From Caminibacter mediatlanticus TB-2 (lineage in GTDB: Bacteria > Campylobacterota > Campylobacteria > Campylobacterales > Nautiliaceae): a DNA stretch of 64,000 nt. The notes beneath the pieces were generated by a model, which saw nothing but the letters and a program-made list of their open reading frames with translations, was not told the DNA's origin and made no database searches. Below are positions 29,371 to 40,867 of this stretch, piece by piece. The position numbers and the translations under genes were made by a program. Position 1 is the first letter of the stretch. Each line of letters opens with the position of its first letter. Where the stretch lies: the NCBI RefSeq assembly GCF_005843985.1, contig NZ_CP040463.1, forward strand, positions 1,414,001-1,478,000. Reading direction: 5' to 3'.

Positions 29371-29832
29371 TTGGATTATAAATTAATTTGCGAAGTTTTA
29401 GTAATATTAATAATTGGATTTAGGATTTATGTTTTAAGTAGATTTAACATAAAATCAGCAGCAGATAAAATTTTCGCTTTATATTATTTAAAAAATCATT
29501 ATCCACTTATTGGATATATTGTAATTTTTTATATTTTAGAAATAATATTAATACAAATTGCTCTATTAAATATTATAGACATTGTTTTAATAGTAATTTT
29601 TACCTTAGAAGCTTTTTTAGTTTATAGACATATTTTTATTTCTTTAAAAACTGATGATAAAGATGATTATATTGATGTAGTAATCAAAAGAATTTTTATA
29701 ACACTTACATATTCAGAGTACCAAGAAATAAAGAATGAATTATACAAACCTCAACCTATATGGAAACTTTATATTACAGAAATTATGGTATTTTTCTTTG
29801 CTATTTGGTCAATTGAAATTCATAATATTTAA
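29371..29832 (+). CDS. Hypothetical 153-aa membrane protein
   Basis: No family was recognised. Four hydrophobic segments are visible (about residues 5-22, 47-68, 70-90 and 133-150), with a charged cytoplasmic stretch (KTDDKDDYIDVVIKR) before the last. TTG start; AAAAGG overlaps the end of the TauE gene, implying co-translation. Possibly an accessory subunit of that transporter. Confidence 0.65.
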   Translation: MDYKLICEVLVILIIGFRIYVLSRFNIKSAADKIFALYYLKNHYPLIGYIVIFYILEIILIQIALLNIIDIVLIVIFTLEAFLVYRHIFISLKTDDKDDYIDVVIKRIFITLTYSEYQEIKNELYKPQPIWKLYITEIMVFFFAIWSIEIHNI

Positions 29833-29844
29833 TTCTATATTCTA

Positions 29845-29949
29845 ATATTAGTTAACAATGGAAAATGGACAATAAAAAATGATAAAAAGTATTGAAACAA
29901 CGAAAATTTTAAACATTTTTAAATTAACTAACTTATTGTAAATTGGTAT
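29845..29949 (+). repeat. 105-bp interspersed repeat, copy A
   Basis: It aligns without gaps over 105 positions to copies at 40874-40978 and 50966-51070. The best-conserved blocks are ATTTTTAAA followed by TAACTAACTTATT near the right end, and GTATTGAAA in the middle (shared with copy B). The right end, AATTGGTAT, is the exact inverse of the left end (ATACCAATT) of copy C. It fills the gap between two convergent genes. Confidence 0.75.
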
Positions 29950-30004
29950 CTTACAAAGTAATAAAACAAAAAAATAAAAATTTTTCTTTATATAATTAAA
30001 TTAA

Positions 30005-31936
30005 TCACTTAATAGTAAAATCAACTATTTTAGGAATAACCGGTAATTGTAATTTAGCATTATCAATATACATATAGACAATTGAAGATTGTATATCATT
30101 ATCACTTATTTGTTCTTTATTAAGTAGTTTAGATTTAAATTTTCTATCAAAATTTTTTAAAGATGCCATATATGCAATATTTTTTTGATTAAATATATTA
30201 AAAATTTTATTTGTTAATGGGATAATTCTCGAACTTAAATCATTATCAAATTTATATAAATCAATATATTTACATAAACTAATTAAAGTAATAATTTTCT
30301 CTTTTTCATTATTTTGATCATAATAATTTGTTTTACTTATAATTTGATTAATATATTTACTAATATAATTTATATCATCTGAGTTTATTGAGCGTGAATT
30401 CATAATACGTGCATAACTCATCATAATATTTTTTAAAATTAAATAAGTATACTTACTTTTCTTAACATTATTTAATATATTTTGAAAAAATCCTATCGTA
30501 AAAAAATAATATATAGTGTTTTCAAATCTGTTAGATATAAAATCACTTGTAAAACTTGGATTTTTTTTAAGCTCCATTATATAAACAGAATACATGTTTA
30601 ATATTAAATTATAATATTGAGTCAAAGAAAGATTATTAGAATTTAATGTTGATGTACTACTCACTCCTTCCTCTATGTATTTTAATAACATATCTGTTTT
30701 GTATGTTTTTGATATATTTAAAGCATTCGAAGCATTTACACCATTATTTATTAATGATATATATAACAATTCTTTCCCTAAAAATATATTCTTAGAATAA
30801 TTGAATTCATTATATATCTTTTTAAAATTATTTATAATATTTATTAATGAATCTTTAGTAAATGACAAATTATTTAAAATAATATTATCTAACACATTAA
30901 ATTTATCTTTAAAAAATTCAGAATTTGTGTCCCGTAAAACTTGCAAAACTTGCACATTTTTATTTTTAAAAAAATAAAAATCATTTAATTTAAAAAACTC
31001 TAATTCAGGTAGTATATCACTAAGCAAAATCGTATTGATATCAGTTTTAACAAACTGAATATTTTTTTCCATATTAATAGAAAGTTTTTTCAAATTAATT
31101 AAATCGATACTTTTTAATGAAGTTAGAATTTTTGTTATATTATTATCATTTGATGCATTTAATATATCAAATAGATTATCATTAATAAATTTATTTTCAT
31201 TATTACTATAATATTTTCTACCTATAATATCATTTACATTAATGTTTTGGTAATCTATTTTATTTATATCAATTAATTTATCCTGTTTAGAAATAATATA
31301 TTTCACCAATATATCTGTATTTAAATCATAAGGTAAAGCTTTTTTTATTGCATTTAAAAATAATATTATTTTTCTTAATAACAAATTATCTTTAGGATTT
31401 AAATAAATTAAAGTCAAATGATTATTAATATTAAAAGCCTTGTTTATAATTTTTTTTGTTTCTTCAAACGAATAATCATAATTTCTCATAATTTTATACC
31501 AAATATCTGATAAAGGAGAAACTGAAATAAATGATGCATTACTTTCTCCTACTGAAAATATAGGAAAACTAATATTAGTATCATTTTTATTAATCAAATT
31601 ATCTAAACCTGTATCAACACCATTTAATAATTTTATATAAAAAATATTAGGTAATTTATTTTTTTTAATAATAAAATTAAATTCGCCTAAACTCTCTTTA
31701 TTATTAGATGTAATACTTTCTCCTAAAATATTTCCTTCTTTATCTAATAATTGGACTCTACCATTATATATAAAACCATCATATGCAATACCTTTTATTT
31801 GTATATTATTTTGTGTAGGTGCATTATTTTGTGTAGGTGTATTATTTTGTTTATGATGTTTTTTTCTCTTAAAAATACATCCATTAAATAATATTAATAA
31901 AATAAAAATTAATAAAAGATTAAAAGTTTTTTTCAT
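30005..31936 (-). CDS. Hypothetical lipoprotein of the SLH operon
   Basis: 643 aa, no known family. The signal peptide has the lipobox LFNGC (Cys20), followed by a basic stretch and an imperfect repeat of QNNTPT-type units (about 30-47). A short beta-rich domain follows (about 48-120, IKGIAYDGFIYNGRVQLLDK), like a carboxypeptidase-regulatory or bacterial Ig fold. The rest (120-643) is mainly helical, rich in Asn, Lys and Ile. ATG overlaps the SLH-protein stop by 4 nt. Probably a membrane-anchored partner of the SLH protein. Confidence 0.75.
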   Translation of the reverse strand: MKKTFNLLLIFILLILFNGCIFKRKKHHKQNNTPTQNNAPTQNNIQIKGIAYDGFIYNGRVQLLDKEGNILGESITSNNKESLGEFNFIIKKNKLPNIFYIKLLNGVDTGLDNLINKNDTNISFPIFSVGESNASFISVSPLSDIWYKIMRNYDYSFEETKKIINKAFNINNHLTLIYLNPKDNLLLRKIILFLNAIKKALPYDLNTDILVKYIISKQDKLIDINKIDYQNINVNDIIGRKYYSNNENKFINDNLFDILNASNDNNITKILTSLKSIDLINLKKLSINMEKNIQFVKTDINTILLSDILPELEFFKLNDFYFFKNKNVQVLQVLRDTNSEFFKDKFNVLDNIILNNLSFTKDSLINIINNFKKIYNEFNYSKNIFLGKELLYISLINNGVNASNALNISKTYKTDMLLKYIEEGVSSTSTLNSNNLSLTQYYNLILNMYSVYIMELKKNPSFTSDFISNRFENTIYYFFTIGFFQNILNNVKKSKYTYLILKNIMMSYARIMNSRSINSDDINYISKYINQIISKTNYYDQNNEKEKIITLISLCKYIDLYKFDNDLSSRIIPLTNKIFNIFNQKNIAYMASLKNFDRKFKSKLLNKEQISDNDIQSSIVYMYIDNAKLQLPVIPKIVDFTIK

Positions 31937-34900
31937 TTTATACTCCTTTTTTTAACACATATAACAATAGCACCTTCATTTGATTCAATAGTATTAAATT
32001 CTTTTATATTTTCTGACGGAATAAATTTTAACCATTTATTATTTTTTAATTTATAAATACCTCCTATGGTATAATTTACATTACATCTTATGTCATTAAT
32101 GTCTAAAATACCCCCTTCTGAACCTATTAAAGAATACCCTTCTGGTAAATTTAAAAGATCCATATCATTATCAATTTTAATATTATTTAAAAACTTTATT
32201 TTAGTCTGTTTTTTAGAAATAACAAAAAAACTTCTGCTATCATTAATCTTAGTAAGAAGTTTGTAACCATTCTTAATTATCAATTTTTGAATATTCCCAT
32301 AAGGAGAATAACCTTCCCATTCTTTTGTAGTTGGATTTATTGCCCAAACAATTAAAACATCTTTATTTTTTAAATCTTTAAAATTTATATTACCACTTAT
32401 TAAAGACAGACCTTTAGGAATATTGACAACATTTTCATTTTCATTATTATTTTGTTCATTATTGACAACATTTTCATTTTCATTATTATTTTGTTCATTA
32501 TTGACAACATTTTCATTTTCATTATTATTTTGTTCATTATTGACAACATTTTCATTTTCATTATTATTTTGTTCATTATTGACAACATTTTCATTTTCAT
32601 TATTATTTTGTTCATTATTGACAACATTTTCATTTTCATTATTATTTTGTTCATTATTGACAACATTTTCATTTTTATTTGATAAAAACACACTTTGAAT
32701 TGGCTTTTTATCAGTAATTTTAACAACTTCACTAGTATAATTTTTATTTATTGAAACATTATAATCTCCTACTTTATCTAACATACAATAAAATTTTCCA
32801 TTATTTATTACTACTTTTTTCCCATTTATAAATACATAATCAGGATAATCTCCTTCATTATTTATACTTACTATTCCTTCAATCGCATAAATTGGCTCAT
32901 ATCTAATATTATGGAAATTATATTCTCTAAATTTATCATTTGAAGCAATAATTACTTTCATTGTTAAGGTTTTTCCATAAAATGCTGGAATTGAAGGAAC
33001 AACAAAATAAATTTGATTATTATTCCAATTTACATTTTCAATATTATAAGTGGTATTATTATCACTTAAAATTATATTTATTCTTTCTAAACCAATATTT
33101 AAATTACCTTTGTATAAAGAACCTCTTTTATTTAAAATATACAATTTATTTTCTTTTAATACTTTATTAGGAACACTTAAATTAATATCAAAATTAACAA
33201 AAGTAGAATTATTATCTGCAATATTATTTTTATACGAAAAATTATTTTTATTTAAAGTTAATCTATATTCATCAAAATTAAAATATCCATCATTCCCTAT
33301 TACTTTTATAGTATAATCTACATCAGGCTTTTTTGTAGATGGACAAAAAATCACTTGTGAATTATTCTCATTAACTTTTTTAAAATACCCAAAATTAGTA
33401 GTCCATTTATAATAAGGAGATGAATTTTTATCAAAATTTGCCTTAATAATTAACTTATTACAATTACCTTCTTTTTGTATACTAACATTTATTATTTTTA
33501 TAGGTTTTATACTAGGATTATATTTCTGATAATCAGGAATAATACCAAGCTCTGAACCAGTATTGTAAGAAAAATTAGGTAAATTGAACTGACTATTATT
33601 TACATCGAATTTATAATTTTTAATTCTATCTAAAATTGTTAAAGCTTGAAATACTGTCAATTTTTGATATGGTAATAATTTATTATTATCACCTCTTATA
33701 ATGCCATTTTTAATTGCTGTAGAAAAATATATTTTTGCATCATTACCTAACAAATTATAATCACTAAAATTTTTAATATTTGAAAAATCATAAGATTTTG
33801 GAATATTCAATCCTTCTATTATCATTTTAACAAACTGAAATCTTGTAACATAATCAAGAGGATTAAAAACACCATATTTTGTTGTTAAAACCGATATATT
33901 ATCATCACCCTTATAATTTGTAAGAGTTATTACGGCATTATAATAATTAGTGTTTTTATCTACATCTGCAAAAGGATTTGAATAAAGAGCAATATTAAAT
34001 GGTAATTTAAAATTCGGATTTTTAAGTTTCAAAAATTCATAAATAATTAATGCAGCTTCTGCTCTTGAAATAGGAGAGAATCTAACATTTTTATTCCCTA
34101 AATCAAGTTTTTTTAGTATTTGAGATTTATTAAGAAAACTTAAAATATTACTAAAATCTTCTTCAGAAGTATCTCTATATACTTTAATTTTAATACTTTT
34201 ATCACCTAATATATGTTTCAAATCATCACTTAAAAGATAAAAATTCAATGTTACATTATTTTCTTTTGCATTATAAAGGTATAAACTATTTACAGTATAT
34301 GTAACTTTCCAAGTGTAATTATTTATAGGTTTAATTTGAATATTTCCAAATGTTCCATAACCATCTCTTAATCTTATTTTACTTTCACCTTTTGAAGAAG
34401 TTACTTTCAATACATTTACTTTATAATCAGTTTTTACAGTAAAAATAAATGTTGCTGGAATTTTTTTAACATTACTATCTACTTTTATATGAATAGATGA
34501 TTTTCTAGAATCTTTTGCTAAAACATTAAAACTATAAATTTTGTAATCAACTAAATCATTTGAATTTTTTGCTCTATAGTCTTGCACTATCAATTTAAAC
34601 CATTTATTTTGTATTTTATTATTTTTATATATTCTAAAATTTATCAACCAATTTTTATAATCGTCACTATAATTAAATGCAGTTACAAAATCAGGTTTAG
34701 TCTGAACTATTCCATCTTTTAAAAAATAATAAATATTTTTATTATCAGTTTCAATTTTTACAACTTTTGGTTTTGTAGATAAATTAATCTCTGCTTTATA
34801 ATCAACATAAGCATTTGTTTCATTTATTTTTGAAATTGAGAAATTTTTTATTTTTATATAATCTATTCTATCCACATCAAAATATTTTATTTGACTATCA

Positions 34901-35634
34901 ACTAATTCATTAGCACTTTTAGCTCTATAATCCTGAACTATTAATTTAAACCATTTATGTTGTTTTTCATTATTTTTATAAATTTTAAAAAAAATTGTCC
35001 AATCTTTATAATTATTAGAATATATATATTTATAAAAAATTTTATCATTAATGTACGGAACATTTCCATTTTTTAAAAAATAATATGAACTACCACTATT
35101 AGTCTCTATTTTAATAACTATAGGTCTTTGAGAAAGTGTTATATTCATTTTAAAATAATTATAATTATCATCATTTTTTATTTTTTGAATAGTAAAATTA
35201 GTTATTTTTATAGGATTTACCGCTTTTAAAATAAAATCAGGAAAAGAAAAATAATCACCATTATCCGATTTAACCCAAACTTTTAATTTTCCTTGTGATA
35301 AATAATTAAACGGATAAGTATATTCTGCCACATCCATATCATAATATTTACAAATAAATACTTTATTATCACCTGACATATATCTTGATGAAAAAGAATC
35401 TCCATCTGAAAATTTTATAAACATTTCTCCACTATATTTAAATTCACTTCCATCTTCTTTTTCAATTAATACACAAAATCTTTTATTCTGTTCACTTATT
35501 CCAGCTGCAGCTTTTAATTTAATACCTGAATTAGTAGAATATACCCATTTATGATCAGGTATTACTTGCCATGTTGCTGCATTTAATGCTGACAAGATAA
35601 AGAAAAATATTATGAGAATTTTATTTATTTTCAT
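31933..35634 (-). CDS. Large exported protein with S-layer homology domains and Asn/Glu repeats
   Basis: 1233 aa with a signal peptide (1-19). Two tandem repeats of about 115 aa (about 141-255 and 259-373) share WFKLIVQDYRAK and close flanks; a looser third beta domain follows (380-490). Three SLH-like units span about 510-675: ISRAEAALIIYEFLK, FADVDKNTNYYNAVITL with TRFQFVKMIIEGL, and AIKNGIIRGDNNKLLPYQ. After more Ig-like stretches comes a 13-aa tandem repeat (about 990-1072) and a C-terminal domain (1073-1233). SLH domains normally bind wall polymers, so this is likely a cell-wall- or envelope-bound surface protein. Confidence 0.82.
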   Translation of the reverse strand: MKINKILIIFFFILSALNAATWQVIPDHKWVYSTNSGIKLKAAAGISEQNKRFCVLIEKEDGSEFKYSGEMFIKFSDGDSFSSRYMSGDNKVFICKYYDMDVAEYTYPFNYLSQGKLKVWVKSDNGDYFSFPDFILKAVNPIKITNFTIQKIKNDDNYNYFKMNITLSQRPIVIKIETNSGSSYYFLKNGNVPYINDKIFYKYIYSNNYKDWTIFFKIYKNNEKQHKWFKLIVQDYRAKSANELVDSQIKYFDVDRIDYIKIKNFSISKINETNAYVDYKAEINLSTKPKVVKIETDNKNIYYFLKDGIVQTKPDFVTAFNYSDDYKNWLINFRIYKNNKIQNKWFKLIVQDYRAKNSNDLVDYKIYSFNVLAKDSRKSSIHIKVDSNVKKIPATFIFTVKTDYKVNVLKVTSSKGESKIRLRDGYGTFGNIQIKPINNYTWKVTYTVNSLYLYNAKENNVTLNFYLLSDDLKHILGDKSIKIKVYRDTSEEDFSNILSFLNKSQILKKLDLGNKNVRFSPISRAEAALIIYEFLKLKNPNFKLPFNIALYSNPFADVDKNTNYYNAVITLTNYKGDDNISVLTTKYGVFNPLDYVTRFQFVKMIIEGLNIPKSYDFSNIKNFSDYNLLGNDAKIYFSTAIKNGIIRGDNNKLLPYQKLTVFQALTILDRIKNYKFDVNNSQFNLPNFSYNTGSELGIIPDYQKYNPSIKPIKIINVSIQKEGNCNKLIIKANFDKNSSPYYKWTTNFGYFKKVNENNSQVIFCPSTKKPDVDYTIKVIGNDGYFNFDEYRLTLNKNNFSYKNNIADNNSTFVNFDINLSVPNKVLKENKLYILNKRGSLYKGNLNIGLERINIILSDNNTTYNIENVNWNNNQIYFVVPSIPAFYGKTLTMKVIIASNDKFREYNFHNIRYEPIYAIEGIVSINNEGDYPDYVFINGKKVVINNGKFYCMLDKVGDYNVSINKNYTSEVVKITDKKPIQSVFLSNKNENVVNNEQNNNENENVVNNEQNNNENENVVNNEQNNNENENVVNNEQNNNENENVVNNEQNNNENENVVNNEQNNNENENVVNIPKGLSLISGNINFKDLKNKDVLIVWAINPTTKEWEGYSPYGNIQKLIIKNGYKLLTKINDSRSFFVISKKQTKIKFLNNIKIDNDMDLLNLPEGYSLIGSEGGILDINDIRCNVNYTIGGIYKLKNNKWLKFIPSENIKEFNTIESNEGAIVICVKKRSIK
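32425..32676 (-). repeat. 39-bp in-frame tandem repeat
   Basis: Six near-perfect 39-bp units (32425-32658) plus a partial seventh encode repeats of NNEQNNNENENVV in the SLH protein. There is no spacer between units and the unit is a multiple of three, so copy-number change keeps the frame. The repeat forms a polar, disordered linker. Confidence 0.95.
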
Positions 35635-37529
35635 CTGTGCACCTTTTTATTTATTAGTATTTCAGTTCTTTCTAATAACAATAGTACTTGCCATATTTTT
35701 AATGGTTTATTTGAATATTTACCAGTCGAAATTTTATATTTCCTCAAAATACATCCTACTTTTGAATCACATAAAGATCCAAAACTTTTCTTTAATAAAG
35801 ACAAATCTTTATAATGATCTAAATTTAAAATATTGACTAAAAATCTAAAAAACTCTTCTCTTTTAATATATAAACTCCATTTAATTTTTTGTAAATTTTT
35901 ATTTATATTTGCTCTATTTTGCATTTCCTTTATTGAAGTTATTTTAGAAAATCTATAAAGAATGTTAATAAGTTTATTATATGAAATATCATCTAAAATT
36001 TCTTCTTTAAGATTTGGATTATAATCAATCAAACCTAATTTTAATGCTTTTATCAAAACAATATTAAGCAAATTTTTTTTATCATAAGAAATCTTGTAAA
36101 TAGGAATAAAAGACTTAATAAAAAATTCTTTCTTATTAATTTTTTTTATCCCTGAAAATAATAAAAATTCTCTATTGTCTATTTTAACTAACTTAAATAT
36201 TGTATTATATAATTGTGCATTTTTAATATATTTCATATATACATCTTTATAATAATACGGATTTAATACAGAATAATTGTAATTAGCCAAATATAAATTA
36301 TAATAAAAAGACTCAAAATTATTGATAGAATCAGTATATATCATTTCAATATTATATTTTTCTTCTAATGGCAACATCCAATATAAACTATTTGTAAAAA
36401 AAGTTTTGCTATTAATAGAACTATTTATAGGATTTTTATCATTAACATTTATATATATTTTATAATTACCACCATCTCCAAATCTATTAATTAAATCTAA
36501 TGCAGTATGAGCAACAATCCATAAATAGTACATATTTCTACCATCCATTAAATTTATATTATTCAAATAATTATGAGTAATACCATAAATAATAAAAACT
36601 TGAAAAAAAGTAAATGGTTTATGTAATAATGTTGGGTTATTAATTCTATAATTACCTGCTTTTTCTGAACTTAAGTCACAATCATTTGCCATTAATTTAA
36701 TGTTCATATTATATTTAAAGATATAATCTTTAATAAAATTTTGTAAATAGAATAAAATTTGTTGCTTATTTTCTATATTCTCTGATTTTGCTACACTATT
36801 CATTAAATTAATACCCTTTAAAATTGCAGTTATAGCTTTTAAATTAATTGTAATTCTATCTAATAAGTATCTTCCAACTGATACTTTTGTTTCTTCATGT
36901 TTACAAACTATTTTATTCACACCTTCTTTTATTACCTGATCCCATATAATATCAAATATTACTTTTTGAAAAGGATGCTGTTTGAAATAATCGTCAGTAA
37001 TAATATCAATAATAGGAGCTTTTATATTTGCATCTATAAGAGCCATTATTTTTTCACAATTAGAACTTTTTTCTTCACCAAGTATTATATACTCTTCTAA
37101 TTGTTTAGCTAACGTTGAAACAATCTTTCCATCTGGATTTTTATCAAAAGGTAATAATAAAAATAGAATTACCGCTTTATAAGGATCATCTATATTATTT
37201 AAAGTATTATCAATTTCATTATATGTCAAATTTAAATCATCTAACTCTTCATTATTATAATTAAGCTGTTGATTTACGTATTTAACTGTTCTTAAATATA
37301 ATAAAAACCCAATAAATTTTTTTGTCAAATTTGTAGGTACAGGATATAATTCTTTTTTATTTTTTTGAGAGACTATAACATAATTTAATACATTTGAATA
37401 ATTTGAAATATTATGATAAATTTTCCATCTTCCTATTGTATTTAAACTAGGATAAATTTCAACTATTCTTGCATTTAACAAATTTATAATTAAAAAAAAT
37501 AATAATATAACTTTAAAAAACTTTTCCAT
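35631..37529 (-). CDS. Hypothetical exported protein, first gene of the SLH operon
   Basis: 632 aa, no recognised family. Signal peptide (1-20, ending LLNA). Mostly helical, with four Cys in the first 300 residues. The C-terminal part (about 485-620) reads like degenerate SLH units: IKALKLGLIDYNPN, then IKREEFFRFLVNILNLDHYKDL, the latter resembling the TRAEF helix. The ribosome site AAAGG is 4 nt before the ATG. Its stop overlaps the SLH-protein start by 4 nt, so the three genes form one translational unit. Confidence 0.7.
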   Translation of the reverse strand: MEKFFKVILLFFLIINLLNARIVEIYPSLNTIGRWKIYHNISNYSNVLNYVIVSQKNKKELYPVPTNLTKKFIGFLLYLRTVKYVNQQLNYNNEELDDLNLTYNEIDNTLNNIDDPYKAVILFLLLPFDKNPDGKIVSTLAKQLEEYIILGEEKSSNCEKIMALIDANIKAPIIDIITDDYFKQHPFQKVIFDIIWDQVIKEGVNKIVCKHEETKVSVGRYLLDRITINLKAITAILKGINLMNSVAKSENIENKQQILFYLQNFIKDYIFKYNMNIKLMANDCDLSSEKAGNYRINNPTLLHKPFTFFQVFIIYGITHNYLNNINLMDGRNMYYLWIVAHTALDLINRFGDGGNYKIYINVNDKNPINSSINSKTFFTNSLYWMLPLEEKYNIEMIYTDSINNFESFYYNLYLANYNYSVLNPYYYKDVYMKYIKNAQLYNTIFKLVKIDNREFLLFSGIKKINKKEFFIKSFIPIYKISYDKKNLLNIVLIKALKLGLIDYNPNLKEEILDDISYNKLINILYRFSKITSIKEMQNRANINKNLQKIKWSLYIKREEFFRFLVNILNLDHYKDLSLLKKSFGSLCDSKVGCILRKYKISTGKYSNKPLKIWQVLLLLERTEILINKKVHR

Positions 37530-37664
37530 AATCCTTTCCCCTTTCTCACAAAATAAGCTTCTCTTAGAATAATTTTCTCTATTTTACTAAAATTAAAATC
37601 TCTTTTTCTATAATAATACCATTTTTTATTATCATATATAAAGTTGGCACATACTGGGCACTGA
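37530..37664. other. Non-coding spacer between SLH operon and IS1 remnant
   Basis: 135 bp without a supportable gene. It contains TTGGCACATACTGGGCAC (37643-37660), with GGCAC repeated 9 bp apart (once as GGGCAC), possibly the worn end of the insertion sequence. An AT-rich stretch with TATTAT-like hexamers could promote the SLH operon. No clear inverted end or target duplication could be matched on the other side. Confidence 0.4.
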
Positions 37665-37995
37665 CTAAATAGCAATTTTATGACCTTTAAGATTAAGTTC
37701 AACAAAGAACATAGCAAGTTTATTATTAAGCCATTCAAAAGATTTAGCATGAGCTTTAGTTTTTCTAACAAGATATGAAATTTTATCTCTCATCTGTGAA
37801 TTTAAATTTTCAACTAAATTTATATATTTTGATTTCTTCTGACTTGCTTTATCTCCATATACATTTGAATATGCAAAATGACCATCTGTATAATACTTTT
37901 CTACTTTTGGCAAATCAAAATTAAATGATAATAAACTCTCAATATCTTTCTTTTTAGACAAAAAGTAAAAATAAAACTTTCTCCGCACATAATTG
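37665..37995 (-). pseudogene. Truncated IS1-family transposase (C-terminal part)
   Basis: About 107 residues of a DDE transposase of the IS1 type. YYTDGHFAYSNVYGD holds the second catalytic Asp, and NLVENLNSQMRDKISYLVRK the catalytic Glu, followed by AHAKSFEWLNNKLAMF. The N-terminal zinc-ribbon and helix-turn-helix half and the first Asp are missing: the frame opens at the left break with no start or ribosome site. It is a dead remnant lying between the SLH operon and uvrA. Confidence 0.8.
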
Positions 37996-38029
37996 ACAAA
38001 AAAAAATTATTATGCTATCTTACACAACT

Positions 38030-38050
38030 TAAAATCTCCTTTCTGTAAGG
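38030..38050 (+). promoter_or_regulatory. Putative uvrA -10 and RBS
   Basis: TAAAAT (38030-38035) lies 19 nt before the GG of TAAGG (38046-38050), fitting the compact layout. An alternative is TTGACA (37993-37998) with TATCTT (38016-38021) at 17-bp spacing, starting right at the break of the IS1 remnant. Confidence 0.35.
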
Positions 38051-38056
38051 AAATAA

Positions 38057-40867
38057 ATGGATAAAATTAAAATTATTGGTGCAAGAGAAAACAATTTAAA
38101 AAATATTAATCTTGAAATTCCAAAAAATAAACTTATTGTATTTACTGGACTCTCAGGTAGTGGAAAATCAACTCTTGCATTTGATACACTATATGCAGAA
38201 GGACAAAGAAGATATATCGAATCACTTAGTAGCTATGCAAGACAATTTTTACAAAAAACAGGAAAACCAGAAGTTGATAAAATAGAAGGCTTAACTCCTG
38301 CAATTGCAATAGACCAAAAAACAACTTCAAAAAATCCTCGCTCAACCGTTGGGACTGTTACTGAAATATATGATTATTTAAGACTTTTATATGCAAGAAT
38401 TGGAATCCAACACTGCCATTTATGTGGAAAAGAGATAACTCAAATGACTCCACAAGATATTATAAATGAAGTTTTAAAATTACCTGAGGGTGCTAAAATT
38501 ATTATTTATGCTCCAATTATTAAAGAAAAAAAGGGAGAATTTAACGATTTAATTGAAAAACTAAGGCATGATGGAATAATTAGAGCTTATATTGATGGAG
38601 TTATTGTTAGACTTGATGAAGAGATTGAACTTAAAAAAACAAAAAAACACACCATAAAAGCAGTAATTGATAGAGTAATAGTTAAAGAAGAAAATAAAAC
38701 AAGAATAGCAGAAGCAGTTGAAAAAGCACTTAATAAAAGTTTTGGAGAAGTTGAAATTGAAATACTTAATGCCAAAGAATTAGGATTAGAAAAAGATTTT
38801 ATCCATTTTAGCGAACATTTAGCTTGTTTTGATTGTAAGGTTAGTTTTGAAGAACTTGAACCTGTTAGTTTTTCATTCAATTCACCAAAAGGTGCTTGTC
38901 CTAAATGTGATGGACTTGGAGTTACTTATACTCTTGATATTGAAAAAGTAATTAAAGATAAGCCACTAAATAAAGGAGCAATTCCACTTATTTGGGGTTT
39001 TAATAAAAAATATTATCAAGAATTTTTTAAAGCCTTATGTAATGAGCTTGATATAGATATGAATAAAAGTTTTTATGAATTAGATGAGTATCAAAAAAAG
39101 ATTATTTTAAATGGAACAGCATATGAGATAGAATTTAATTACGGTAAGCATAAAATATCAAAAAAATGGCCAGGACTTAAACAAATTGCACTTGATTTAT
39201 ACAAAGATGAAAATATGAATGAAATTATGAGTGAGAGTATTTGTCCTGAGTGTAAAGGATTTAGATTAAAAAAAGAAAGTCTTGCTGTAAAAGTTGCTGG
39301 AAAAACAATTAGTGAAATTATTTCTATGCCAATTGAAGAAGTTTATAAGTTTTTTAATAATGAAGAAAATTTTTCTCATTTAACTAACCAAGAAAAAAGA
39401 ATTGCAGAGCCAATTCTTAAAGAAATTAAAGAGAGACTTTTTTTCTTAGTTGATGTAGGGCTTGGATATTTAACTCTTCATCGTGATGCAAGAACTATTA
39501 GTGGAGGAGAATCTCAAAGAATAAGAATAGCTTCACAAATTGGAAGTGGATTAACAGGAGTTATGTATGTATTAGACGAACCAAGCATAGGACTTCATGA
39601 AAGAGATACTCTAAAACTAATAAATACACTAAAAAGTCTAAGAGACAAAGGAAATACTGTAATAGTAGTTGAACACGATAGAGAAACTATTCTTAATGCA
39701 GATTATATTGTAGATATTGGTCCTGGTGCTGGAAAATTTGGAGGAGAAGTTGTATTTGCTGGAAATGTAAAAGAACTTTTAAAAAGCAATACTGAAACAT
39801 CTAAATATTTAAAATATGAAAAAGATATTAACTATCAAAAAAATAGACCTCAAAAAGAGTGGATTGAAATTAAAAATGTAAATATTCATAATATTAAAAA
39901 CTTAAATGTAAAAATTCCACTAAGAAATCTTGTATGTGTTACAGGAGTTAGTGGAAGTGGAAAAAGTAGTTTAATACTTCAAACTCTTCTTCCTGTTGCA
40001 AGAGAGATTTTAAATCACGCTCATAAAATTCAAAAAGTAAAAGGTGTAGAAATAAAAGGACTAAAACAGCTTGATAAAGTTATATATCTTGACCAAAGTC
40101 CAATAGGAAGAACTCCAAGAAGCAATCCTGCAACATATACAGGTGTATTTGATGATATAAGAGCACTTTTTGCTAAAACTCCTGAGGCTCAACTAAGAGG
40201 ATATACACCTGGTAGATTTAGCTTTAATGTAAAGGGTGGTAGATGTGAAGTTTGTAAAGGTGAAGGAGAGATAAAAATTGAAATGCACTTTTTACCTGAT
40301 GTAATGGTTACTTGTGAGGCATGTGGAGGTAAAAGATATAATGAACAAACCCTTGAAATTAAATACAAAGGAAAATCAATTGCAGATGTGCTTGAAATGA
40401 GTGTTGATGAGGCATATGAATTTTTTGAAAAAATTCCAAAAATTGCACAGAAACTAAAAACACTAAAAGATGTAGGACTTGGATATATAACTCTTGGACA
40501 AAACGCTACTACTCTTAGTGGTGGAGAAGCTCAAAGAATAAAACTTGCAAAAGAATTATCTCGCCGTGATACAGGAAATACTCTTTATATTTTAGACGAA
40601 CCAACTACTGGACTTCATTTTAAAGACATTGATAACTTAATGAAAGTATTACAACATTTAGTTGATTTAGGAAACAGCGTTATTGTTATTGAACATAATC
40701 TTGATTTTATAAAAAATGCTGATTATATTATCGATATGGGACCAGAAGGTGGAAGTGGAGGTGGAAAAGTTATAGCACAAGGCAATATAAATGAAATTTT
40801 AAAATATAAAGATATAAGCTATACTGCTAAATACTTAGAAAAAGAATTACAAAGAAAATCAAGATAA
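38057..40867 (+). CDS. uvrA: Excinuclease ABC subunit A
   Basis: A 936-aa DNA-damage sensor of nucleotide excision repair, with two ABC ATPase halves: Walker A GLSGSGKST (about 31) and GVSGSGKSS (about 634), signatures ISGGESQRI and LSGGEAQRI. Zinc-binding Cys pairs include CFDC/CPKC in the first half and CEVC/CEAC in the second. Normal length. Isolated between the IS remnant and copy B of the 105-bp repeat. Confidence 0.98.
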   Translation: MDKIKIIGARENNLKNINLEIPKNKLIVFTGLSGSGKSTLAFDTLYAEGQRRYIESLSSYARQFLQKTGKPEVDKIEGLTPAIAIDQKTTSKNPRSTVGTVTEIYDYLRLLYARIGIQHCHLCGKEITQMTPQDIINEVLKLPEGAKIIIYAPIIKEKKGEFNDLIEKLRHDGIIRAYIDGVIVRLDEEIELKKTKKHTIKAVIDRVIVKEENKTRIAEAVEKALNKSFGEVEIEILNAKELGLEKDFIHFSEHLACFDCKVSFEELEPVSFSFNSPKGACPKCDGLGVTYTLDIEKVIKDKPLNKGAIPLIWGFNKKYYQEFFKALCNELDIDMNKSFYELDEYQKKIILNGTAYEIEFNYGKHKISKKWPGLKQIALDLYKDENMNEIMSESICPECKGFRLKKESLAVKVAGKTISEIISMPIEEVYKFFNNEENFSHLTNQEKRIAEPILKEIKERLFFLVDVGLGYLTLHRDARTISGGESQRIRIASQIGSGLTGVMYVLDEPSIGLHERDTLKLINTLKSLRDKGNTVIVVEHDRETILNADYIVDIGPGAGKFGGEVVFAGNVKELLKSNTETSKYLKYEKDINYQKNRPQKEWIEIKNVNIHNIKNLNVKIPLRNLVCVTGVSGSGKSSLILQTLLPVAREILNHAHKIQKVKGVEIKGLKQLDKVIYLDQSPIGRTPRSNPATYTGVFDDIRALFAKTPEAQLRGYTPGRFSFNVKGGRCEVCKGEGEIKIEMHFLPDVMVTCEACGGKRYNEQTLEIKYKGKSIADVLEMSVDEAYEFFEKIPKIAQKLKTLKDVGLGYITLGQNATTLSGGEAQRIKLAKELSRRDTGNTLYILDEPTTGLHFKDIDNLMKVLQHLVDLGNSVIVIEHNLDFIKNADYIIDMGPEGGSGGGKVIAQGNINEILKYKDISYTAKYLEKELQRKSR

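What the first reader, a model, noticed from the sequence alone, without database searches (positions are those of the whole stretch)
30005..37529. Three-gene exported SLH operon in a campylobacterial genome
Three genes with 4-nt overlaps encode an orphan with degenerate SLH-like C-terminus, a 1233-aa SLH/beta-domain protein and a lipoprotein. All have signal peptides. Known S-layer attachment in Campylobacter works through lipopolysaccharide, not SLH domains, so a wall-binding SLH protein with a dedicated lipoprotein and orphan partner may be an undescribed surface system. Flanking repeats and an IS remnant suggest it was acquired.
Basis: partly seen in the sequence, partly recalled or inferred. 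Interest (0 to 1): 0.65.

Follow-up and report, generated by a model that had tools for sequence, protein, structure and literature searches.

The report
SLH protein paired with outer-membrane lipoprotein
A horizontally gained three-gene unit encodes a wall-binding (SLH) protein whose tail domain is always found next to a particular lipoprotein, and it looks like a two-part link between cell wall and outer membrane in a bacterial group where such SLH links are reported as missing.

Summary
The three genes are real, with 4-nt overlaps and exported products. The middle protein (B, 1233 aa) truly carries an SLH triad: tblastn finds a Paenibacillus SLH protein, the isolated segment passes the Pfam cut-off, and its AlphaFold model matches SLH trimers in the PDB. 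The orphan's (A) SLH-like C-terminus and the 'flanking repeats' are not supported. The operon is an 8.2-kb insert absent from the same site in four same-genus genomes. Same-order Sulfurovaceae relatives show what it belongs to. B's last ~160 aa (CTD) lie directly upstream of a homologue of the lipoprotein (C) in all 14 loci compared, and the two co-diverge (Mantel r 0.95). At least two Sulfurovum-type loci have the same A-B-C trio with SLH in A and B. Around this constant frame the cargo is exchanged: M23 peptidase, alpha/beta hydrolase, RHS repeats, AHH nuclease. Best reading: a bipartite SLH-spacer-CTD plus outer-membrane-lipoprotein chassis, working like an OmpM tether without its barrel and holding interchangeable exported domains. 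SLH proteins are rare here (3 of 377 genomes over cut-off) and OmpM is reported absent from Gracilicutes. Binding of B to C, and of SLH to this wall, is inferred.

The parts
29833..38055 (.). strain-specific insert between the 29371-29832 gene and uvrA-like 38057-40867
   Evidence: the flanking genes lie about 40-250 bp apart in G085, G299 and G542; G039 has two unrelated genes there
35631..37529 (-). gene A, 632-aa exported orphan; no relatives found; SLH at its C-terminus not supported
31933..35634 (-). gene B, 1233-aa exported SLH / beta-domain protein ending in the CTD
33589..34113 (-). SLH triad of B (residues 508-682; motifs SRAE 523, TRFQ 597, TVFQ 660)
   Evidence: tblastn, Pfam on the segment, AF2 plus Foldseek
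34507..35214 (-). repeated beta domains of B (about residues 141-376), similar to repeats in a 1406-aa lipoprotein of G009
   Evidence: tblastn E 3e-19 over 141-360, internal 178-nt repeat at 73%
32421..32679 (-). 39-bp tandem array coding an Asn/Glu-rich spacer just before the CTD
   Evidence: TRF 6.6 copies, 99% match; relatives have a coiled coil or other repeats at this place
31945..32421 (-). C-terminal domain (CTD) of B, residues 1072-1230, WxGYSP family
   Evidence: homologues directly upstream of gene C in all 14 loci compared
30005..31936 (-). gene C, 643-aa lipoprotein (lipobox LFNGC), cognate partner of the CTD
   Evidence: homologues next to every strong CTD
31352..31810 (-). N-terminal beta domain of C (residues 43-195), the only confidently modelled part
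   Evidence: AF2 pLDDT mostly above 80 there; CarboxypepD_reg-like in 7 of 14 members, below the curated cut-off
37657..37982 (-). IS1-family transposase remnant upstream of gene A
   Evidence: Pfam and NCBIfam sub-cut-off IS1 matches; six 88% copies in the same genome

Best explanation
The operon encodes a two-part envelope chassis plus cargo. C is an outer-membrane lipoprotein. The CTD of B docks on C, and a flexible spacer (39-bp repeats here, a coiled coil in most Sulfurovaceae) leads from the CTD towards the SLH triad, which grips peptidoglycan or a wall-linked glycan. B therefore bridges outer membrane and wall, works like OmpM with its barrel replaced by CTD plus lipoprotein, and holds beta domains (here) or enzyme or toxin-like domains (relatives) at the envelope. 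A is a co-expressed exported partner in the slot where relatives carry a second SLH protein or an SLH-bearing RHS or nuclease protein. Shown: gene order, SLH fold in B, CTD-C pairing and co-divergence, exchange of cargo, insertion at this site. Inferred: CTD-C contact, outer-membrane location, wall binding, tether role, role of A.
For: SLH triad in B. CTD and C adjacent in 14 of 14 compared loci, gaps -8 to +10 nt, distance matrices r=0.95 with 0 of 5000 permutations as high. Trio with SLH in A (41.7 and 65 bits, over cut-off) and in B (17.1 and 19.1 bits, just below cut-off) in L063/L069 and L074. Order SLH - coil - CTD - lipoprotein in Sulfurovaceae parallels SLH - coiled stalk - outer-membrane barrel of OmpM (PMC10628300). 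Spacer slot conserved in position, variable in sequence. 13 of 14 C proteins begin as lipoproteins; the residue after the Cys is not Asp in the window and most others (by eye).
Against: Five Sulfurovaceae loci have only a short B (signal peptide, repeats, CTD) without SLH before C, so CTD-C does something without wall tethering. SLH sugar-binding motifs are partly lost (SRAE, TRFQ, TVFQ). No CsaB-type pyruvyl transferase: the one PF04230 protein scores 77.5 bits against the CsaB cut-off of 213 and lies in a glycan gene cluster. No structure for the CTD; C modelled poorly beyond residue 200. The L078 partner has no lipobox. In this genome B's SLH lies mid-protein, not at the N-terminus. Operon linkage alone can give co-divergence.
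Confidence: 0.4

Rival explanations
1. A contact-dependent or secreted polymorphic-toxin system: SLH and CTD-lipoprotein are the constant display/export parts, and the exchangeable middle is the effector; the window copy carries a beta-domain (adhesin-like) version with A as partner.
For: The slot before B in L099 is a protein with TIG, M23 (68.9 bits) and AHH nuclease (26.1 bits, over cut-off) and an SLH-like N-terminus by eye; in L077/L121 SLH-TIG-...-RHS repeats; B pieces of L076 have SLH, M23 (sub-cut-off) and alpha/beta hydrolase.
Against: C is constant and pairs with the CTD, not with the variable part, so it is not a matching immunity protein; no toxin domain found in the window proteins; the trio loci L063, L074 and L100 have no recognised toxin domain in A.
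Confidence: 0.25
2. A surface-layer or adhesin system: B is a cell-surface beta-domain protein anchored by SLH and by lipoprotein C.
For: B is mostly beta-domain and exported; SLH anchors S-layers in other phyla (PMC8559796).
Against: Single copy, absent from same-genus genomes, patchy in the class; relatives replace the beta part by enzymes; campylobacterial S-layers bind LPS (general knowledge).
Confidence: 0.12
3. A decaying genomic-island remnant with no current function: SLH motifs eroded, A without relatives, next to IS debris.
For: IS1 remnant adjacent; degenerate SLH motifs; low GC.
Against: Three long intact ORFs with kept 4-nt overlaps, signal peptides and lipobox; 39-bp array kept in frame.
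Confidence: 0.13

Closest known systems
OmpM / Slp SLH outer-membrane tethers of diderm Terrabacteria (PMC10628300, PMC9388160)
   Same: exported protein with a wall-binding SLH domain and a long spacer leading to an outer-membrane anchor
   Different: no outer-membrane barrel recognised in B; the putative anchor is a separate lipoprotein joined through a CTD; the host is a Gracilicute, where OmpM is reported completely absent
Gram-positive SLH surface proteins (Sap, SpaA)
   Same: three SLH repeats, fold match to 3pyw, 6bt4 and SpaA entries
   Different: diderm host, no CsaB over cut-off, motifs eroded, paired lipoprotein
Polymorphic toxins (RHS, AHH nuclease)
   Same: relatives carry such domains in the exchangeable part
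   Different: no such domain in the window; the downstream gene is constant, not a matching immunity gene
CTD-like (WxGYSP) domain of Campylobacterota beta-propeller (PF09826) proteins
   Same: weak CTD homologues at the N-terminus of those exported proteins
   Different: those copies are not followed by a C-type lipoprotein

Membership tests
SLH domain (PF00395) | profile score over curated cut-off | tested here: met
   isolated segment 24.8 bits vs 20.8; whole protein 14.8, below cut-off
SLH domain (PF00395) | three-repeat pseudo-trimer fold | tested here: met
   AF2 pTM 0.71, mean pLDDT 69 with SLH relatives in the alignment; Foldseek 3pyw E 5e-6, TMt 0.71; 15 best hits all SLH
SLH domain (PF00395) | TRAE-type ligand motif in the repeats | tested here: inconclusive
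   SRAE, TRFQ, TVFQ: one nearly full, one partial, one lost
OmpM tether | N-terminal SLH in the periplasm followed by a spacer | tested here: inconclusive
   SLH at N-terminus in Sulfurovaceae B, mid-protein in the window; location not testable
OmpM tether | C-terminal outer-membrane beta-barrel | tested here: not met
   C-terminus is the ~160-aa CTD followed by a separate lipoprotein; no barrel family match
S-layer protein | abundant lattice-forming surface protein | not testable with these tools
   needs proteomics or electron microscopy
Pyruvyl-glycan (CsaB) anchored SLH system | CsaB pyruvyl transferase in the genome | tested here: not met
   only PF04230 member scores 77.5 vs CsaB cut-off 213.1 and lies in a glycan gene cluster
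Polymorphic toxin system | toxin domain in the variable part | tested here: not met
   none in window A, B, C; present in relatives L099 (AHH) and L077 (RHS, read by eye)
B-CTD / lipoprotein C pair (defined here) | CTD gene directly upstream of a C homologue | tested here: met
   14 of 14 loci, window included

The most novel reading that the evidence does not exclude
A previously undescribed bipartite envelope system of Campylobacterota in which SLH and CTD-lipoprotein form a constant wall-to-outer-membrane frame into which adhesins, peptidoglycan hydrolases, lipases and RHS/nuclease toxins are slotted: at once an OmpM-like tether in Gracilicutes and a display platform for polymorphic effectors.
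Probability: 0.25. Interest if true: 0.8.

Novelty: new variant of a known kind. Interest (0 to 1): 0.55.

Why it matters
SLH-based outer-membrane attachment is described as a Terrabacteria trait and OmpM as completely absent from Gracilicutes (PMC10628300). An SLH protein tied to an outer-membrane lipoprotein in Campylobacterota would show that the wall-binding domain can be recruited, by horizontal transfer, onto a lipoprotein anchor, and would give these bacteria a swappable display platform. It turns an unannotated operon into a defined, testable pair (CTD and C).

Tried and rejected
Whole-protein Pfam and NCBIfam gave nothing useful for A, B or C. A single triad profile from mixed A and B SLH regions misaligned and was no better than shuffles, so single-repeat profiles, an independent tblastn hit and structure were used. 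A as an SLH protein in this genome: rejected as unsupported. Flanking repeats: not found. Phage or plasmid origin: no CTD in viral contigs, no C homologue in plasmids. Fold search with the lipoprotein model gave nothing below E 0.001. Lysozyme-like (GH25, SLT) and LGFP-like stretches that I saw by eye in A of L100 and L074 were not confirmed by Pfam, PHROGs or PDB sequence search and are not used. The SLH hit in same-genus G085 turned out to be a contig open only under TGA=Gly, probably mis-binned. PADLOC: nothing.

Full report
Observation. Three minus-strand genes at 30005-37529 overlap by 4 nt each. Reading order is A (35631-37529, 632 aa), B (31933-35634, 1233 aa), C (30005-31936, 643 aa). 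By eye A and B begin with signal peptides and C has the lipobox LFNGC. GC is 18-22% in the operon against about 25-30% around it. A real 39-bp tandem array (6.6 copies) lies inside B, not in the flanks.

Is SLH real? Whole-protein Pfam gave 14.8 bits, below the 20.8 cut-off. Three further tests support it. (i) tblastn of all of B against 7.3 Gb of plasmid DNA found residues 508-682 in a Paenibacillus protein (E 8e-4) whose stretch holds three SLH domains at 110 bits; the alignment runs through the three repeats. (ii) The segment scanned alone scores 24.8 bits, over the cut-off. (iii) AlphaFold2 of residues 485-705 (pTM 0.71, pLDDT 69; SLH relatives in the alignment, so not fully independent) has as its 15 best PDB matches only SLH trimers (3pyw E 5e-6, TMt 0.71; 6bt4 TMt 0.75).

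Acquisition. In four same-genus genomes the genes on either side of the operon (29371-29832 and the uvrA-like gene) flank the same site without it: about 40 bp apart in G085 and G299, about 250 bp in G542, while G039 has two unrelated genes there. The operon is thus a strain-specific insert of about 8.2 kb in a variable site. A search of 200 class genomes found no relative of A and none of C by single sequence. The IS1 remnant (37657-37982) is 88% identical to six copies elsewhere in this genome, so it belongs to an IS family already present here and does not by itself explain the insertion.

Relatives. The C-terminal ~160 aa of B (CTD) hit small proteins in Sulfurovum-type genomes, each directly followed by a lipoprotein whose N-terminal 115 aa match window C. 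Profiles of CTD and C then found each other: every strong CTD lies next to a strong C. A scan of 84,980 species genomes gave 12 CTD loci, all Sulfurovum, Sulfurovaceae or 'Campylobacteraceae' MAGs, and a family-wide search 13 of 175 genomes. In 14 compared loci B and C are -8 to +10 nt apart, and CTD and C distances correlate at r=0.95 (0 of 5000 permutations as high). Operon linkage alone could produce co-divergence; it shows that the pair is inherited as a unit, not that the proteins touch.

The trio. L063/L069 (Sulfurovum sp. FS08-3) has A with a C-terminal SLH (41.7 bits), B with an N-terminal SLH region (17.1 bits, sub-cut-off), coiled coil and CTD, then C. L074 (Sulfurovaceae BB14) has A with SLH at 65 bits, B overlapping A by 4 nt with SLH at 19.1 bits (sub-cut-off), then C. 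L100 has A with SLH (50.4 bits) and a B cut by the contig end.

Exchangeable cargo. In L099 the slot before B is a 1959-aa protein with an SLH-like N-terminus (by eye), TIG, M23 peptidase and AHH nuclease. In G284 two contig ends share an identical stretch of residues, which suggests, without proof of contiguity, one protein of SLH-TIG-...-RHS repeats before B. In L076 B pieces contain SLH, M23 and an alpha/beta hydrolase. Just before the CTD there is a coiled coil in most Sulfurovaceae loci and Asn/Asp-rich tandem repeats in the window, L075, L070, L073 and L098. Five loci have only a short B of signal peptide, repeats and CTD, behind an STT3/PglB-like gene.

Mechanism. The frame SLH - spacer - CTD - outer-membrane lipoprotein has the same order as OmpM, SLH - coiled stalk - barrel (PMC10628300). 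I therefore favour a bipartite wall-to-outer-membrane connector that carries exchangeable exported domains. Shown: SLH fold, gene pairing, order, cargo exchange, insertion. Inferred: CTD-C contact, outer-membrane location of C (residue after the lipobox Cys is not Asp), binding of SLH to this wall. The ligand is open: the SLH motifs are SRAE, TRFQ and TVFQ, and no CsaB-type enzyme was found.

Comparison. B is a member of the SLH domain family by profile and fold. The system is not an OmpM, because the barrel is missing; it may still work like one. It is not shown to be an S-layer. It is not a polymorphic toxin system in this genome, though relatives carry such domains. SLH over the Pfam cut-off was found in only 3 of 377 class genomes, one of them likely a mis-binned contig. 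The window itself is missed by that whole-genome cut-off, so diverged SLH proteins are undercounted. No paper in the held library was found that links SLH domains to Sulfurovum, and the four that mention S-layer homology together with Campylobacterota are gut, rumen or host-adaptation surveys by title.

Noticed in passing
L070, L065/L071, L012/L072, L073, L098: A short B (signal peptide, NDNST-rich repeats, CTD) plus C sits directly behind an STT3/PglB-like oligosaccharyltransferase gene in Sulfurovum-type loci; the repeats are rich in N-x-S/T sites.
   Followed up: partly
L120 (G085:C41): 37-kb contig binned in the window's genus is open only with TGA=Gly (table 25) and reads like phage structural genes, one with an SLH region; probably mis-binned or a phage of an SR1/Gracilibacteria host.
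   Followed up: partly
29833-38055; L123 5678-7359: Same-genus genomes have no genes, or an EamA-like transporter plus an AraC-like regulator (by eye), at this site: a variable insertion spot beside the uvrA-like gene.
   Followed up: yes
G000:C1 at about 421, 422, 572, 673, 741 and 1341 kb: Six near-identical copies of an IS1-family element in this genome.
   Followed up: no
L102-L106, L108: Weak CTD-like (WxGYSP) domain at the N-terminus of beta-propeller (PF09826) type proteins and at the C-terminus of a DUF6055 protein: a mobile exported domain without a Pfam name.
   Followed up: partly
L061 4964-7216, L062 5007-8171: Two further lipoproteins of this genome share the N-terminal beta domain of C; one carries a metallophosphatase.
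   Followed up: no
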